Shown here in pieces: positions 1 through 63,873 of a stretch of 64,000 bases of DNA. Both the position numbers and the translations under genes were made by a program. The DNA comes from Bactericera cockerelli (taxonomy: Eukaryota > Arthropoda > Insecta > Hemiptera > Triozidae). Numbering within the stretch: position 1 is the first letter of the stretch; each line of letters opens with the position of its first letter. The notes beneath the pieces were generated by a model. The model worked only from the letters and a program-made list of their open reading frames with translations, made no database searches and had not been told where the DNA came from. The stretch lies in NCBI GenBank assembly GCA_024516035.1, contig CM044955.1, positions 46,018,969 through 46,082,968 on the forward strand. Reading direction: 5' to 3'.

Positions 1-582
1 ATTAATCTTGATACACCTGGCTCTGAGCACAGGACCGGAAAGTATTATTAATATTAAATCTTGTTACACCTGGCTCTGAGCACAGGACCTGAAAACATTA
101 TTCATCTTGATACACCCGACTCCCACAGGACCTAAAAGTACCTATTATTAATCTTGATACACCTGGATCTGAGCACAGTGCCTGAAAGTATAATTAATCT
201 TGATACACCTGACTCACACAGGACCTGAAAGTATAATTAATCTTGATACACCTGACTCACACAGGACCTGAAAGTATTATTAATCTTGATACACCTGACT
301 CACACCACACAGGACCTGAAAGTATTATTAATCTTGATACACCCGACTCACACAGGACCTGAAACCATTATTAATCTTGATACACCCGACTCCCACAGGA
401 CCTGAAAGTATTATTAATCTTGATACACCTGGCTCTGAGCACAGGACCTGAAACCATTATTCATCTTGTTACACCTGACTCACACAGAACCTGAAAGTAT
501 TATTAATCTTGATACACCTGACTCACACAGGACCTGAAACCATTATTCATCTTGATACACCTGGCTCACACAGGACCTGAAA

Positions 583-775
583 GTTTTTTTTTAAATTAAA
601 ATTAAAAATAAAGATGAGTGTTTCACAGCCGTTTTTAATTCGTAGCCATGAAACAGGAGCTACTGTAGACGCTTGTGGTCTGTGTTGTAGACTACCCATC
701 CCGTAGTATGCCTCCCCTCCGATGGGCGAGAAGTGACACAATACTTCCCAATTAAGTGCTGGGTCCTTTATAATT
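583..775 (-). repeat. Interspersed repeat J inside the exon 1 array
   Basis: A poly-T start, then GATGAGTGTTTCACAGCC and a segment with CATGAAACAGGAGCTACTGT, recurs in the opposite orientation at 12490-12650, there ending in poly-A. It looks like a retroposon inserted into the array. I do not recognise the class. Confidence 0.6.
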
Positions 776-1149
776 AATAATAAAAAGTATAATTATTAAT
801 CTTGAACCACCCGACTCCCACAGGACCTGAAAGTATAATACATTAATCTTGAACCACCCGACTCCCACAGGACCTGAAAGTATAATAAATTAATCTTGAT
901 ACACCTGACTCACACAGGACCTGAAAGTATAATTAATCTTGAACCACCCGACTCCCACAGGACCTGAAAGTATAATAAATTAATCTTGAACCACCCGACT
1001 CCCACAGGACCTGAAAGTATAATTAATCTTGAACCACCCGACTCCCACAGGACATGAAAGTATTATTAATCTTGATACACCTGACTCACACAGGACCTGA
1101 AAGTATAACAATTAATCTTGATACACCTGACTCACACAAGACCTGAAAG

Positions 1150-1427
1150 TATGTATGTATGATTTGTTTGTTGTGAAGCACCAGGCCTCTTCACAATTTT
1201 TGTGGATAGCGCAGCATTACTAAGCTTCCTTCACATTTCGAATTATTCAATTACATTAATTTCTTTTTACTCTGATAATGCCGCCTCTGGTCGTTACTCA
1301 TACAAGTAACCACCCCGAACGTTCAAGTACAGATCAGAAAAATTCCTCCCCCGCTGGGGATCGAACCCAGGTCACCATGCGTGCAATGCCTAGCGCGCTA
1401 ACTCGCTCTGCCACGCTGACTACACAC
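1150..1427 (-). mobile_element. SINE-E (tRNA-like head), minus
   Basis: It shares GGCCTCTTCACAATTTTTGT and the tRNA-like head (on minus CACCGTGGCAGAGTGAG ... GGGTTCGAT box B) with copies at 34335-34830, 47835-48112, 54092-54235, 55062-55300 and 63085-63168. It lies inside the exon 1 array, so it inserted after the array formed. Confidence 0.7.
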
Positions 1428-1476
1428 AGGACCTGAAAGTATAATAATTAATCTTGAACCACCCGACTCCCCACAG

Positions 1477-36827
<35,351 letters not shown>

Positions 36828-38399: not shown

Positions 38400-40250
38400 T
38401 TTATTACATTGAGTATTAATAATTCCGTGTCAATACGATGTGCATTGTGCATACATTATACCTGTCACGTTGGTGGAAGGATTATCCAGATCCAATATTA
38501 AGAAAAGAGGTTTCACTCTCCAATCGTTCGGAATCCCACTTGCTACCCAAATTAACCTCAGCTGCCTGGTTAGGCGGGAAAAGCCAATCTCACGTGTACA
38601 ATGTACATGTAAACGAAATTATTTGTTAAAAAATTCTGCTCAACCGTTAAACTAGGGAGGTTTGCAGTTCCCACAAGGATCTCCTGTATTGATTTCACTG
38701 AACGTAATGTGCAGTTTACCTACAGCATCGGTCCTGGACCTCGTATGAAGATTTTCAAAAAATTACTGGAAATTATATGTTAAATTGAATAAATAAATGC
38801 TACGGAACTCAGCTCCATTTACAAGTAAACAAAACTTTATTTGATCATTTTTAATGAAAGAATAAATTATAAATCTTACTCCCTTAAAAGACATAAACCA
38901 ACGTTGTTTTATTGGCGATGCAAAACCACATATTTCATTATTGCAACAAACAAAGCATAAATATATTTTTTTAGTAGAAATGCTTTAAAATGCAAGTCTT
39001 GGAAAAAAAAACTGAAAGTTATTTAGGGGAAACCCCAATGTAGGTGGATCCATGTTCTTCTGGTATGTTAAATATGAATACATGGGGTGTATATTATATC
39101 GAATTCGATCTTATTTATACACCAATAAAAATAACAACCAACGAATGGGCTCAAAACAAATGTATCAACATGTACAAGATCTTTAAATTGACGTATAGGT
39201 TTCAGTAGGCCTTGTGTGCGTTTTGGAATTAATATAGGAGTGAATAATTATAAAGATACTATAAATTTTTCTAGATGAAAATACTGAAGGAATGATGAAC
39301 GAAATAATAATACCCACAGGAGGCTGTTCCCAAAAAACGTATTTTACGCGGGAAGATAGATAAAAGTGATTGCGGATGAGTCGAGCAACACAGAAGAACA
39401 AGAAGATCCAGGGTTGCATTACATTTCACTACAGTGTTGTCAGACGCACCCTTGTAGTTGTTCTATCTTGTGCTAAAGTAGGAGTATCAACATAGGGCTT
39501 GGTGGAATATGTTGCCATAGGCAATAACCCCGCCATTGTTTCGATTAAATTCGTTGAAACTATTTTCGATAGACTTACGGTTCTGGACTTTAGAGTAGTT
39601 AGTGGAATACACAAGATGACGGTGACAAGATAATAACAAATTCATTGTTTCGATTAAATTCGTTGAAACTATTTTCGATAGACTTACGGTTCTGGACTTT
39701 AGAGTAGTTAGTGGAATACACAAGATGACGGTGACAAGATAATAACAAATTCATTATCCAAAAATACAAATTTAAATTTTCTTGCAACATTTAGGAATCC
39801 TGGTAATTCGAAGACGTAATGTGTTCTAGGTTTCTTCTGAATTTGCGCGTAACTACTGAGTTCTGTCAGCGTGACATTGACATTGAAATCAATGTCGAAT
39901 GCTTATCATTTTCTATTAAAGTGATATTTAAATATTCGTTATTATCTCGTTACGTACGTTATCTTGTTTATTTCCATTAACTATTCCTAAGTTCAGAAAC
40001 GGACGTCCAACTGTTATGACAATAGTTTCATAGGGGTTCCAACTTTATTTCTATGTGCTACTGAGGGCGTATGCCGGCTATGTATCAAAAGTCCCACGTA
40101 AAATCGTATGGAACAACCACAAACCCTGCATATCTTTACTAATTAATAAATAAATATTGAAAATTTATCACCGGATGATTTCTCTCTCAAACCATTTTAA
40201 ACTACATTTCAGATGGTGTCTCTCTACTTTACAAATGAATCTTTTTCAAA
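38400..40250. other. Intergenic region between convergent Mi-2 and ACBP genes
   Basis: No gene is supported. A SINE-C-like fragment is near 38490-38660. A 109-nt direct duplication (39534-39642 and 39643-39751, starting CATTGTTTCGATTAAATTCG) and a repeat G end (39505-39535) lie here. A possible ACBP poly(A) signal on minus (TTTATT on plus) is at 40254-40259. Confidence 0.6.
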
Positions 40251-46500: not shown

Positions 46501-49500
46501 CTTCCAGTTCTTTTATAGGTTAAGTACATTGTTTATCTTTAAAAGTAACCAAACGCATTTTTCTTTTACGAATGACCTTGGAATAAAATGGAAATATTTG
46601 GAAGAAAACTAACCAGGAAATTTTTTTTTGGTTAGAAAGAAAAATACGACTGAAGATCCCCAAAACGCAGGGCCCGTAGCTCGTGCTACATTTCCGTTAA
46701 TCCAGCCCTGCTAATAGGTTCTGAAGAGGTGAATATTTAATCGTACTGTGGTGATAACAGAAGTAACATGATATGATAACTAAGACTAGAGAATCCACAC
46801 ATGATAAAAAAGTAATTCGAAAAAAAACAGGGACTATTAATACTATAGCGGTTCAAGGATATCGAGAGTGTAGAAGCAGGGTGATCGAAATCATCCGGCC
46901 ACTATCTTATACTCGAGAACAGCTCGAGCTAGGAATTTGAAACAAAAAAGTGGTTCTGAAGTTTCTTGGGAAAATATTTTGAATCTTTGCCAAAAGTTCG
47001 TTTCTCCTGAATTTGAAATAAAAAGCATATATTTTTCATTTCATATGAAGAAAATAGTAACACTAGAAAAATACAATACAGTATTACCCTGCTATATAAA
47101 ATTCCTTTTTAGTAACCCTCATTACCCTCACATACCAAACTTGTTTTTATTCAAACATTTTTTAAAGGAAGACGAGCCATCTGTTCCAGGAACAAAATTT
47201 TCCTTGCGGGTCCAGTGGAACTAAGTTTCCGAAGTTCACTGTAACCATTGAGCTACCGAGACCGGCAGTTGTTTTTTAATCGGATAAATTCGATGGTGTG
47301 TAGTCATCTGTTCTTTACAGACAATATTTTTGAAAAACCTGTGTAAATTTTATAGTATACCCTGTTAAAAGTAGTGAACGTATGTTCACTTGTTTGTTTT
47401 TCGCAAAATATATGTCATAATATAGGACAGGTAGCAAAAAGCTATTTTTTTTATTATATATAATAGGTATATATTTATAACAAATTTCATAAGAAATATA
47501 CCTAATACATAGTATAAAAATTCAATAATTACAACTCTATCTTCCATATTGAAACGACTTGCTTGTATCTGCATCCTTTCTATCTGAGAGAAACAGATCG
47601 AAGTATAGCTATTTCAATATTTATCTTTGTCCAGCCACCATACACTTGACTCAACCTTTTAGTCCACTTAGCTGAACCTAAACATTTGATATTCTGAATG
47701 CAATGATTCATCGACTTTGATGTCAGCTATTAGGGCACCTGCATTTTGACTCGCCTCTTGGACGACTGTTTAAACACATGCTCAATCAATTCCAGATAAT
47801 AATAAATAAATGAAATAGTTTAAAATAAATAAATGTTTCATTGTGTTATTATATCACAATTTTTAGTGGGTAGCGCAGAATTACAGAACTTTTCCATACC
47901 TTTTAATATCCTAATATCTTATTTTTGCCTATAATTCCGCCACTGGTCGCTGCTCACATTGAAGCAGCTACTCATTTTTCCTCACGTGGTATGAGCGGAC
48001 CCTGAACACTCAATAACACAGTAGAAAAAAACGTGCCCTGCTGGGGATCGAACCCAGGTCACCGTGTGTGCAATGCCTCGCGTGCCAACTCACTCGGTCA
48101 CGGTGACTTCTAATACCAGATAATGCAGTCAGTACATTCATCACGCAAATTAATGCTGGCCGCCCGTGTAAGTCAAGAAATATAATTTATTTTCAGTCAA
48201 ATTAATAATGTTAAAAAAAATTCATCTTTCAATAACTTTCATATACAGTCGAACCTGGATAAAGAGAACTTGGATAAAGAGGAAACCCCTATAAAAAGGA
48301 AGGAAATCGTGGCCCCTTCATTTTTTGACCAAAAACCTGGTTAAACAGGAAATTCGAGCCTCTATAAAGAGGAATAGTATGTTTTTTCGGAAACTCGTCG
48401 CCCCGCGGTTGGGAGCCTCTATAAAGAGGAAAACTGTTTCATCTGAACCTCTGTAAAGAGGAATTTGGATCGAGCGAGCCTCTATAAACAGGAAAACCAT
48501 TTCGCCAAACTTCTTTAAACAGGACTTTGTTGTGACTTGTTTAATCTTGCACACAATGTGTCGCTTATGAAATTAATTCTCACTCCTTTTTGTATCAGTC
48601 AGTTTCAGTTTCAGTACCTACCTTCAGTTCTTATTTGTTACTTGAGAGACTATAGTTTTCAATCATGTCTGGTAAAAAAGTTCCACATAAAACTCGAAGC
48701 ATGAAAGAAAAGCTGGAGATCATCGCCAAATATGAAGACGGGGCAACACCAAAGCAACTGATTGAGTTCTATGGCATGTCGTCAACATCCCTCTACAATC
48801 TCATAAAAGCAAGGGACACGATAAAACTCAAGAATGCTGAAGGACTAATCTCATGTATACATTTATGCTAACATTTTTTTGTTTACCTAGGTACATTCTT
48901 CGCAGAAGTACTTAAAAAATAAACAACCCCATGAAACCTTACATTATGGTCAGTAAATTTATTTTCTTATTAAAATTTCGCAGCTTGAAGAATCGAACCC
49001 CAGCACTGTGATTTAAAAAACAACCATGTAAACCACTAACCGTAGGACAATATTCCTCTCGACCTGTATTTTAATGAACCTCTAGAAGCAGGAAAACGAA
49101 ATTTGGAACCTCCCTAAAGAGGAAACCTTTTTAAAGAGGAAACCTCTATAAAGAGGAATAGATTGGCGGTCCCTTCAATTCCTGTTTATCCAGGTTCGAC
49201 TGTAATATAATATGTTCTATAAAAACGACTACTTACATAATTCTGTACTTTTCAGGGAAAAAAATGATAATAATATCGCCTTCTTTATACTTACTGCCCG
49301 ACTAGGACTAATGAGTCCCATTATTCCAGAAGTAAGCTCAAGACGTATTATCAAGTCGTCAAATTCCCAAATTGGATTACCAGACCCATGAGCTGTATAC
49401 AATATCTTACCAGTGGTGTTGTCGCCTACTGTTGCTTGTTTGAACAGAGCGTAGATTTCTAGGAGCTCCGTATTGTCTGGGTTACCGTTCAAGTTCTTCA

Positions 49501-52500
49501 CATCTTCGACAGCTTGATTGAATTCCTGTGAATTTTACATTTGTCAATGTTTTATTTATATATTTACACTTTATTAATAGGACATATTATATACAACACA
49601 AATAATTTATTACAAATTAAAATACAACGTAATAGAAGAAAAAAAATAAAGAAAAAATAAATAAATACAAACGTAATATATGTCCTAACTAAAGGGCGGG
49701 GTTATTGCCTTTGGCAATCTCTTCCACCCAACCCTTTTTTTTACAGAGCGTAGATTTCTAGGAGCTCCGTATTGTCTGGGATACCGTTCAAGTTCAAGGT
49801 TTTGAATTTATTATTTTAATGTTCAATCAATGTACATTAAAATAATAAATACAAAATCACAAATTGTGTGATTGTTTTTGTGTAAGTACAAATAGGTAGG
49901 TAACTATCCTAGAGCGATAAAAATTGACATTATTTCAATAACATTTTACTTAACATAATTAGATAGATATCTTGATTAGCCTCCGTGGCGTGACGGTTGT
50001 GACTACTGCCCGTAGTCCAGAGATCCTCAGTTCGATCCCCGGTCGGAGCAGCTTTTTCACACAGAAAATCCTGTTCCCTCCGTACATGTGAGTCTGGCGA
50101 TTCCGGCCCTACTCAGGCTGGGTGAGGTTAATGTGGGCAGCTGGTGCGATTCCCAGCGAATGGAGGGTAAAACCCCCGTCCTAATCTAGGACTTTAATAA
50201 AATGAAATCGTTGGCTTTCATAGGAATCGTAGGAAGGGAATCCAGCCGTAAAAAAAAGTGCCAAAACCAACCAACATCAACTATGAGGTTGAACAACGTC
50301 GATCCTACTTGAGCGGGATAATACAGAGTAAAATTTGATGAGTCTCAACCTAGACAAATGTAAAGTAGACAAATGTAAAGACAAATAGATAATTTGATGA
50401 GTCTCAACCTAGACAAATGTAAAGTCATGTCCTTTCATACCAAATTAAACCCTTTACTTGCTTCTTATAAAATAAATAACACCGAGCTAACCAGAGTGCA
50501 TAACATCAGAGACCTAGGGGTCATTTTTGAACCAAATCTAAAATTCAATATGCACTATGATAATATAAAAAGAAAGTCATTGAGCATGTTGGGCATGCTG
50601 TACAGACATACTCAGGACTTCAGAAATCCTAAAAAACCTGTATTACACTTATGTACGTTCTCGTCTTGAGTATTGCTGTACAGTATGGTCCCCTCAGTAC
50701 AACACCCACATTAAATTTTTAGAAGCTGTACAGCATAAATTTTTGAAAATGTTGGCTTACAAAACTTTTAAACGTATTGAAAATCACAACTACAATGAAA
50801 TAATGTCAACATATGAAATAGTAAGCCTTGAAAACAGGAGAAAAATACAAGACCTTATTTTCATATACAGGGTGAGCATAAAGTCTCACCCCACCCCCCG
50901 TATCTCAAGAATGGCTGAAAATACAAGAAAACGCAAAAACCCGTATTCCTTAATTTTTAGGGGGATTAATTTTCAGCCAAAAATTTTTTGCCTACACGGC
51001 CCCAGTCAGGCTGGGCATGGACCAATTTTAAAATCTTAAATAGAATAGTATGTCTTGTGGCATATTATTTAAAGGTCTTATAAAGAGAATTTCAGTACAA
51101 CAAATTTCAGTGAGCTACGACTTACCGTTCTCGAGATACAGGGTCGGACGTCCTGCGTAATATCCATATATTTTGACCTATAACTCGTTGACCGTAAATT
51201 CCAGAAAAATGAAATTTGTTGATAATAACTCCTTATGGCAAGAACTTTCGAACAAGTTAAAACTTGATTTGTTTTTTCGTTAAAATTTTTCGGACTGTAT
51301 GTCCGGCTGGCTGACGAAACCGACCAGAAACTAATATCAACAGAGTATGTCGAGTTATACCTTTTTCGACAGGGCTTGTCATAAGGAGTTATTATCAACA
51401 AATTTCATTTTTCTATAATTTACGGTTAACGAGTTATCGGTAAAATATATGGATATTACGCAGGACGTTCGACCCTGTATCTCGAGAACGGTAAGTCGTA
51501 GCTCACTGAAATTTGTTGTAATGAACTTTTCTCTATGAGACCTTTAAAACAATATGCCACAAGACATACTATTCTATTTAAGATTTTAAAGTTGGTCCAT
51601 GCCCAGCCTGACTGGGGCCTTGTAGGCAAATTTTTTTTGGCTGGAAATTAATCCCCCTAAAAATTAAGGAACACGGATTTTTGCGTTTTTTTGTATTTAC
51701 TGCCATTCTCGAGATACGGGGGGTGGGGTGAGACTTTATGCTCACCCTGTATAAAATCATAAATAATCAAGTGTACTCTCCTGAACTCCTTGGTAAATTA
51801 AACATAAAAATAAAAACAAGATTCACAAGATCAAAGGATACATTTGTTCTAGGTGGAAACAAAACTAATCTAGGTGAACATTCGCCCCTTCACCGAATGA
51901 AGAAAATTGGAAATATCGCCGGTCATGCTGGTCTGGATCTGTTTTCCTGCCATTTAAGTGATTTATTACATTTTTTTACTGACTAGTGTCCAATTAACTT
52001 GACCTAACTTGATTGGGTTGTAACTTTGTAAATTTATATTCTTATGTCCATTTTATTTTATTTTATGTTAACTGTATTTTATTGTATTATATTTTTTTTT
52101 TTTTTAAGTGGGGTTTAACGTCGCTCTCAACTGCCATGGTCATATCACGACGGGGGTTTTACCCTCCATTCGCAGGAAACTCACAAACCTGCTACTCACA
52201 TTGACCTCACCCAGCCTGAGTGGGGCCGGGAAAAGCCAGCGTCACGAGAATTAGAATTTGAATGGTCACCCATCCAAGTCTTAACCTCGCTGGATGTCGC
52301 TTAACTTCGGTGTTCTGAAGGGAACCGGTGTATTCAACATGCCATCGACGCTGGCTGTATTATATTTTAATTTTTATGTTTTTTGTAATAAATGGAGCTT
52401 TAACTCCGTCGAATTATTTAAAAAAAAAAAAGAAGATAGATATCTTGATTGGTAGGAATTTTACTCAGATTATTCATACTGTGCACAACTAAGTACGAGA

Positions 52501-57927: not shown

Positions 57928-63873
<5,946 letters not shown>

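What the first reader, a model, noticed from the sequence alone, without database searches (positions are those of the whole stretch)
1..36055. Repeated expansion of minisatellites across Mi-2 splice junctions
Seven exon edges (acceptors of exons 1, 5, 16, 21; donors of 12, 14, 24) have tandem arrays abutting or near them, and the donor edge of exon 16 is duplicated. Units in at least six include both the splice site and 8-57 nt of exon. Arrays sit always on the intron side: upstream for acceptors, downstream for donors. Unit sequences and lengths (about 23, 31, 44, 73-78, 77, 77 nt) are unrelated, so these are independent events with a common tendency. They create ladders of decoy splice sites in an essential gene. 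I do not know of a described system like this.
Basis: partly seen in the sequence, partly recalled or inferred. Interest (0 to 1): 0.93.

Follow-up and report, generated by a model that had tools for sequence, protein, structure and literature searches.

The report
Splice-junction mirage repeats in insect gene
In the Mi-2 gene of what is likely a psyllid insect, six of 49 exon edges carry tandem repeats whose unit includes the splice site and a piece of exon, a kind of repeat already described in lancelets as "mirages"; the spare splice sites are predicted to be ignored, and the pattern would let one test why duplications gather at exon edges.

Summary
A 25-exon model of the C-terminal part of Mi-2 (1394 aa, 24 GT-AG introns, no internal stop) agrees with psyllid Mi-2 proteins. 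Seven of its 49 exon edges carry minisatellites. At six (acceptors 1, 5, 21; donors 12, 14, 24) the unit spans the junction with about 8-59 nt of exon. The seventh (acceptor 16) abuts its exon, but exon content is unproven. Donor 16 has two further, dispersed exon-end copies. Of 8 large non-coding arrays in the gene, 6 span a junction; 0.66 expected, P about 3e-6, though post hoc. Each of 78 in-register copies examined, if used, would shorten Mi-2, so splicing presumably takes the exon-proximal copy.

It is not an undescribed system: lancelet genes have such "mirage" minisatellites (PMC3087553, PMC3902484, passages), and human IFI6 a related donor minisatellite (PMC4526556, passage). New, as far as my searches show, are the insect host and the density within one gene. 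Likely mechanism: junction-spanning tandem duplication, then unequal exchange. Why edges are favoured (roughly 34-fold per base) is open. The genome-wide question could not be asked: the search did not complete.

The parts
1477..36827 (+). Mi-2 (CHD4-type remodeller), C-terminal part: 25 exons, 24 GT-AG introns, 4185 nt coding, 1394 aa, stop at 36827; the 5' part lies left of the window
   Evidence: model, open frame; human CHD4 6ryr, E=0; psyllid Mi-2 proteins
1..1476 (+). Array at the acceptor of exon 1: 43-53-nt units ending ...CACAG|GACCTGAAAG; 22 upstream unit ends by a relaxed search, 21 of them in register with AG; interrupted at about 575-780 and 1150-1400
5689..6088 (+). Array at the acceptor of exon 5: 71-96-nt units with pyrimidine tract, CAG and up to 36 nt of exon; 4 upstream acceptor copies
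13270..14035 (+). Array at the donor of exon 12: about 77-nt units = 54-59 nt of exon tail + CAG|GTGAGT + about 20 nt intron; 9 downstream donor copies, all with GT
16025..17021 (+). Array belonging to the donor of exon 14 (exon ends 15706): about 77-nt units with up to 55 nt of diverged exon tail + GAG|GTGAGA; 13 copies, 12 with GT
21363..22368 (+). 23-nt-unit array abutting the acceptor of exon 16 (exon begins 22377); five longer copies carry pyrimidine tract and AG; exon content unproven
22543..24108 (+). Donor of exon 16 with two further exon-end copies: 22781-22804 (donor GT lost, behind an interspersed element) and 24084-24108 (22 of 25 identical, spans the junction)
29181..29542 (+). 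Array at the acceptor of exon 21: 73-78-nt units with a TACTAAT branch-site-like motif (motif recalled), pyrimidine tract, CAG and about 15 nt of exon; 4 upstream acceptor copies
35049..36052 (+). Array at the donor of exon 24: 31-nt units ...CGAGTCAG|GTAAGTTCACACTCATT; 27 in-register copies, 25 with GT, 24 of them CAG|GTAAGT

Best explanation
Six of 49 exon edges of this Mi-2 gene carry tandem arrays whose unit spans the exon-intron junction, the kind of repeat called "mirage" minisatellites in lancelets, and they were likely each seeded by one short tandem duplication across the junction, grown by unequal exchange or slippage, and tolerated because splicing is predicted to use only the exon-proximal copy. 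Shown: the arrays, their junction-spanning units, the open reading frame with exon-proximal sites, the frame damage that a spare copy would cause, and the enrichment within this gene. Inferred: the duplication and exchange steps, and splice-site choice. In donor arrays the first copy and in acceptor arrays the last copy must be used, which is what pairing of sites across the shortest exon (exon definition) would give and what a shortest-intron rule or a first-transcribed rule would not. Also inferred: the clustering at edges could reflect duplication that prefers exonic DNA, with purely exonic duplications removed by selection, so that survivors straddle the edge.
For: Arrays and units. Gene model. 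In three psyllid-type Mi-2 proteins (P0121, P0122, P0123) 20 of 24 junctions are free of gaps within 12 residues and the start of exon 1 continues normally upstream; the other four (17/18 to 20/21, acidic linker) have indels of at most 9 residues. Enrichment: 6 of 8 large arrays span junctions, P 3.4e-6, roughly 34-fold per base. Each of 78 in-register copies examined (A1 21 of 22, A5 4, A21 4, D12 9, D14 13, D24 27; three of them have lost GT) would shorten the protein if used; the mildest leaves 1382 of 1394 aa. Outer units of A5 and A21 have diverged or recombined while the unit next to the exon matches it, as expected for growth outward. Exon shares of units range from about 10 of 43 nt to 54-59 of 77 nt, so breakpoints look arbitrary. 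Lancelet precedent: same anatomy at both edge types, regular splicing suggested by RT-PCR, length instability (PMC3087553 passages).
Against: No RNA of this species was seen; use of the exon-proximal copy rests on the reading frame and on relatives' proteins, whose own genes may lack arrays. The position-wise test shows no edge excess. Splice cores of the copies are somewhat less variable than other columns (4 variant cells; P 0.017 in random circular shifts, 0.029 by variable columns, donors alone 0.07), while a plain core-dinucleotide test gives P 0.77; purely neutral decay would not predict the former, though re-seeding from the functional copy could. The preference for exonic DNA is untested, and so are breakpoints and microhomology.
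Confidence: 0.62

Rival explanations
1. The spare splice sites are functional: arrays would bind U1 or U2AF repeatedly and strengthen or regulate splicing or suppress early polyadenylation, and selection keeps them.
For: Splice cores of copies vary less than other unit columns (P 0.017, 0.029 by columns); D24 copies have a stronger donor than the real one, and several A1 and A21 copies score above the real acceptor.
Against: Donors alone P 0.07; core-dinucleotide test P 0.77; two D24 copies and one D14 copy have lost GT; units share no common element between edges.
Confidence: 0.13
2. Array copies are really used as alternative splice sites, making a family of transcripts, most of them degraded, that tunes Mi-2 level.
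For: Copies keep consensus sites; in human IFI6 two downstream repeat units are used as donors (PMC4526556, passage).
Against: Each of 78 copies examined would shorten the protein, which this rival needs rather than forbids; lancelet mirages are reported not to interfere with regular splicing (PMC3087553, passage).
Confidence: 0.12
3. Clustering at edges is chance plus selection of a striking window: a genome with many intronic minisatellites where this gene happens to show six at edges.
For: The window was chosen because it looked striking; one gene only; position-wise test not significant.
Against: Event-wise P 3.4e-6 for large arrays and 3.5e-5 for 14 loci; 8 of 49 edges versus 2 of 284 exon-internal probes.
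Confidence: 0.1
4. Assembly artefact.
For: Tandem arrays are a usual place for assembly error; copy numbers may be wrong.
Against: Copies within an array differ from one another; units differ at every edge; the 4185-nt coding sequence is intact. No reads were seen.
Confidence: 0.03

Closest known systems
Lancelet (Branchiostoma) 'mirage' minisatellites: Adh3, globins BflGb6 and BflGb9, troponin C, PGBD5
   Same: Tandem repeats whose unit spans an exon-intron boundary; both acceptor and donor edges; units of 10 to 160 bp; many copies carry AG/GT signals (PMC3087553 and PMC3902484: passages seen).
   Different: Here an insect; six edges of one gene plus two doubtful or broken ones, against one or two per gene in the passages seen; up to 27 copies; no RNA or polymorphism data.
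Human IFI6 (6-16, G1P3) minisatellite providing multiple splice donor sites (1995 paper; title seen only in reference lists)
   Same: Repeat unit carries a donor site next to an exon end.
   Different: In IFI6 two downstream repeat units are used as donors and give isoforms (PMC4526556, passage); here the donor copies would shorten or shift the protein.
Variable internal tandem repeats at exon-intron boundaries of duplicated human genes
   Same: Minisatellite repeats at a boundary that can involve splice sites (PMC2812944, passages).
   Different: There the repeats change exon or intron structure of recent paralogues; here the coding exon is unchanged.
Intron gain by tandem duplication of AG/GT-containing coding sequence (Drosophila and potato cases)
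   Same: Local tandem duplication that copies splice signals (PMC2891723, passages; PMC4974935, listings only).
   Different: There an exon-internal duplication becomes a new intron; here an existing junction is multiplied inside an existing intron.

Membership tests
Mirage minisatellites (lancelet type) | Tandem repeat unit spans an exon-intron boundary | tested here: met
   six edges
Mirage minisatellites (lancelet type) | Both 5' and 3' exon boundaries can be affected | tested here: met
   acceptors 1, 5, 21 and donors 12, 14, 24
Mirage minisatellites (lancelet type) | Many copies keep AG/GT signals | tested here: met
   D12 9 of 9, D14 12 of 13, D24 25 of 27; A1 relaxed search 22 of 22 with AG, one displaced
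Mirage minisatellites (lancelet type) | Regular splicing is not disturbed | tested here: inconclusive
   open frame with exon-proximal sites; psyllid proteins gap-free at 20 of 24 junctions; no RNA of this species
Mirage minisatellites (lancelet type) | Length polymorphism and somatic instability | not testable with these tools
   one assembled sequence only
Mirage minisatellites (lancelet type) | Concerted evolution of inner units with diverged boundary units | tested here: inconclusive
   seen by inspection at A5 (5758, 5851) and A21 (29226, 29304), two of six arrays; no tree was built
IFI6-type donor minisatellite | Downstream repeat units serve as alternative donors with coding isoforms | tested here: inconclusive
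   donor copies would shorten or shift the frame, the mildest leaving 1382 of 1394 aa; use in RNA not tested
Tandem-duplication intron gain | A new intron at a new position | tested here: inconclusive
   in the model the arrays lie inside introns and no copy forms an extra exon; intron positions of relatives were not compared

The most novel reading that the evidence does not exclude
In this insect lineage exon-intron edges are active duplication hotspots genome-wide, about 30 times hotter per base than intron interior, so that many genes carry ladders of intact spare splice sites that the spliceosome reliably ignores by an exon-definition rule, and that act as a standing nursery for new introns and exons, evolved independently of lancelets.
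Probability: 0.25. Interest if true: 0.82.

Novelty: new member of a known kind. Interest (0 to 1): 0.55.

Why it matters
One gene offers six natural competitions between near-identical splice sites, on both donor and acceptor sides, with the outcome fixed by the reading frame: the exon-proximal copy must win even where it is the weaker site (exon 24 donor, exon 1 acceptor). That makes rules of splice-site choice directly testable. It also suggests that the lancelet oddity is a recurrent mutational outcome in animals, which would supply raw material for intron gain by tandem duplication, a long-debated route.

Tried and rejected
Position-wise enrichment was run first and gave no excess; it counts repeated bases, which the arrays dominate, so I moved to an event-wise test and an edge-probe test; all three are reported. 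Constraint on spare splice sites: a dinucleotide test was null, a core-window shift test weakly positive (one of 25 D24 units dropped for its length); left open. A16 as a junction-spanning array: not accepted, since the alignment stops before the AG. Acceptor of exon 20: a 14-nt copy 200 nt upstream is better read as the target-site duplication of a short interspersed element (112 of 151 identical to another copy). Acceptor of exon 18 scored 24 by its intron part alone and was not counted. Introner-like mobile introns (recalled family) were rejected because the units are unrelated between edges. Other genes of the window: an acyl-CoA-binding gene and a guanylate cyclase on the minus strand, only partly modelled by eye, show dispersed exon copies but no tandem array at a junction that I recognised. 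The interspersed-element string gave 0 matches in viral contigs. Papers: nine searches, judged from the listings, three of which were cut (20 of 26, 15 of 1,686, 15 of 32 shown), gave no insect case of junction-spanning minisatellites; the library misses most subscription journals.

Full report
What is there. The window holds the C-terminal part of a Mi-2 gene. I located 25 exons by reading the sequence and checked the model in a script: all 24 introns are GT-AG, and the joined coding sequence of 4185 nt is open for 1394 aa to a stop at 36827. Human CHD4 (6ryr) matches with E=0. In a search with the full 1394 aa (120 of 6874 hits listed) the top hit is unnamed (P0121) and the best named relatives are Diaphorina citri (87% identity over 98%) and Cacopsylla melanoneura (90% over 68%), both Psylloidea. 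Against these three proteins 20 of 24 junctions are free of gaps within 12 residues, and exon 1 continues normally upstream; the other four, in the acidic linker (17/18 to 20/21), have indels of at most 9 residues (seven of 240 fetched proteins were aligned). So the source is likely a psyllid; no tool named it.

The arrays. Tandem Repeats Finder finds large arrays at 52-1152, 5689-6124, 13270-14035, 16025-17021, 21363-22368, 29181-29542 and 35049-36052, plus a 155-nt repeat at 30367-30708. Cutting them at the splice sites shows that at six edges the unit contains the splice site and a piece of exon: acceptors of exons 1, 5 and 21, donors of exons 12, 14 and 24. The 23-nt array before exon 16 holds the pyrimidine tract and AG in five longer copies, but I could not show exon sequence in it. 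The donor of exon 16 has two further copies of its exon end, at 22781-22804 (GT lost) and 24084-24108 (22 of 25 identical), separated from the exon by an interspersed element and other sequence.

Is it more than chance? Placing units at random in the gene, not wholly inside an exon, the 8 large arrays should give 0.66 junction-spanning ones; 6 are seen (P 3.4e-6). With 14 merged non-coding loci of period 15 or more it is 6 against 0.81 (P 3.5e-5). Spanning was scored by hand; periods under 15 and the coding repeat of exon 19 were left out. Per base, junction windows hold large arrays roughly 34 times more often than the remaining intron. With 32-nt probes against the adjacent intron, 8 of 49 edges score 28 or more, against 2 of 284 exon-internal probes, both overlapping the exon-12 unit; one of the eight, acceptor 20, is better explained by a target-site duplication. 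Against this, a count of repeated positions shows 5 of 49 edges against a mean of 9.1 for shifted sets: the arrays fill the introns. The tests are post hoc on a window picked for being striking, and concern one gene.

What the copies would do. Scored with matrices from this gene's own sites, 9 exon-12 copies and 12 exon-14 copies have donors identical to the real ones, and 24 exon-24 copies read CAG|GTAAGT where the real site reads CTG|GTAAGT; several copies at acceptors 1 and 21 outscore the real acceptor. At the same cut-off other introns hold 73 donor-like and 269 acceptor-like sites in 24,935 bases, so site-like sequence as such is common. I translated the outcome of using each in-register copy: 21 (of 22 found by a relaxed search) at acceptor 1, 4 at acceptor 5, 4 at acceptor 21, 9 at donor 12, 13 at donor 14 and 27 at donor 24, 78 in all including three that have lost GT. 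Each shortens the protein; the mildest, the first copy at donor 24, leaves 1382 of 1394 aa. So a full Mi-2 requires the first donor and the last acceptor, the copy next to the exon in both cases. This is inferred from the frame; RNA of this species was not available. It fits pairing of splice sites across the shortest exon (median exon 178 nt, median intron 1083 nt) and does not fit a shortest-intron or first-transcribed rule.

How it may arise. Units are unrelated between edges, and exon shares range from about 10 of 43 to 54-59 of 77 nt, so breakpoints look arbitrary. The unit next to the exon matches it best while outer units at acceptors 5 and 21 have diverged or recombined. I infer a seed duplication across the junction followed by unequal exchange. 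Why edges are favoured is not settled: duplication that prefers exonic DNA, with exon-internal products purged, would give it; so would selection for spare sites. Splice cores of copies vary less than other columns in a shift test (P 0.017; donors alone 0.07), but not in a plain test of the core dinucleotide (P 0.77).

What is known. [quoted passage not shown] Passages of PMC3902484 add PGBD5 and troponin C. The original Adh3 paper is not held. Passages of PMC2812944 report variable repeats at exon-intron boundaries of duplicated human genes. In human IFI6 two downstream repeat units serve as donors (PMC4526556, passage; the title of the 1995 minisatellite paper was seen in reference lists only). 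Nine paper searches (listings, some cut) gave no insect case. The finding is therefore a new member of a known kind, in a distant animal lineage and at unusual density.

Verdict. Real in the sequence, not an artefact on present evidence (no reads were seen), striking in density, but with a described precedent. The genome-wide question, which would decide its importance, could not be asked: the search of the window's own genome was unanswered nine times.

Noticed in passing
27761-27974: A short interspersed element (112 of 151 identical to the copy at 26789-26939) sits just upstream of exon 20 between two copies of TACTAAGGTGAAGG; it seems to have inserted across the acceptor, so the target-site duplication doubled the splice site and the element's tail now precedes the real acceptor.
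   Followed up: partly
22564-22780: Another interspersed element lies inside the duplicated donor edge of exon 16, flanked by copies of GTGAGTGTGCCT; by eye its A-rich end reads opposite to what the plus-strand copy at about 6370-6560 would predict.
   Followed up: partly
49435-49496 and 49734-49795: Minus-strand acyl-CoA-binding gene: a 62-nt piece, by eye from inside an exon, is repeated about 300 nt upstream in the intron (94% identical), next to a mobile-element-like stretch; it does not span a junction.
   Followed up: partly
57928-61040: Minus-strand guanylate cyclase region (Pfam hit at 57928-58233) whose upstream part reads with frameshifts by eye, while the part from about 59703 downwards looks intact; an 85-nt exon end with the first bases of its donor is present twice (60052-60136 and 60570-60654, 95%).
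   Followed up: partly
39534-39755: Exact 2 x 109-nt tandem repeat; on the minus strand each copy holds a donor-like CCGTAAGT. No exon was identified there.
   Followed up: no
18161-20780: Intron 15 holds a large inverted repeat in four successive arm pairs (460, 165, 201 and 281 nt, 97-100% complementary), a near-palindrome of about 2.6 kb, probably a mobile element or a local inverted duplication.
   Followed up: partly
33041-33694: A 217-aa open frame in intron 23 that looks by eye like the tail of a retrotransposon reverse transcriptase; Pfam gave no match.
   Followed up: partly
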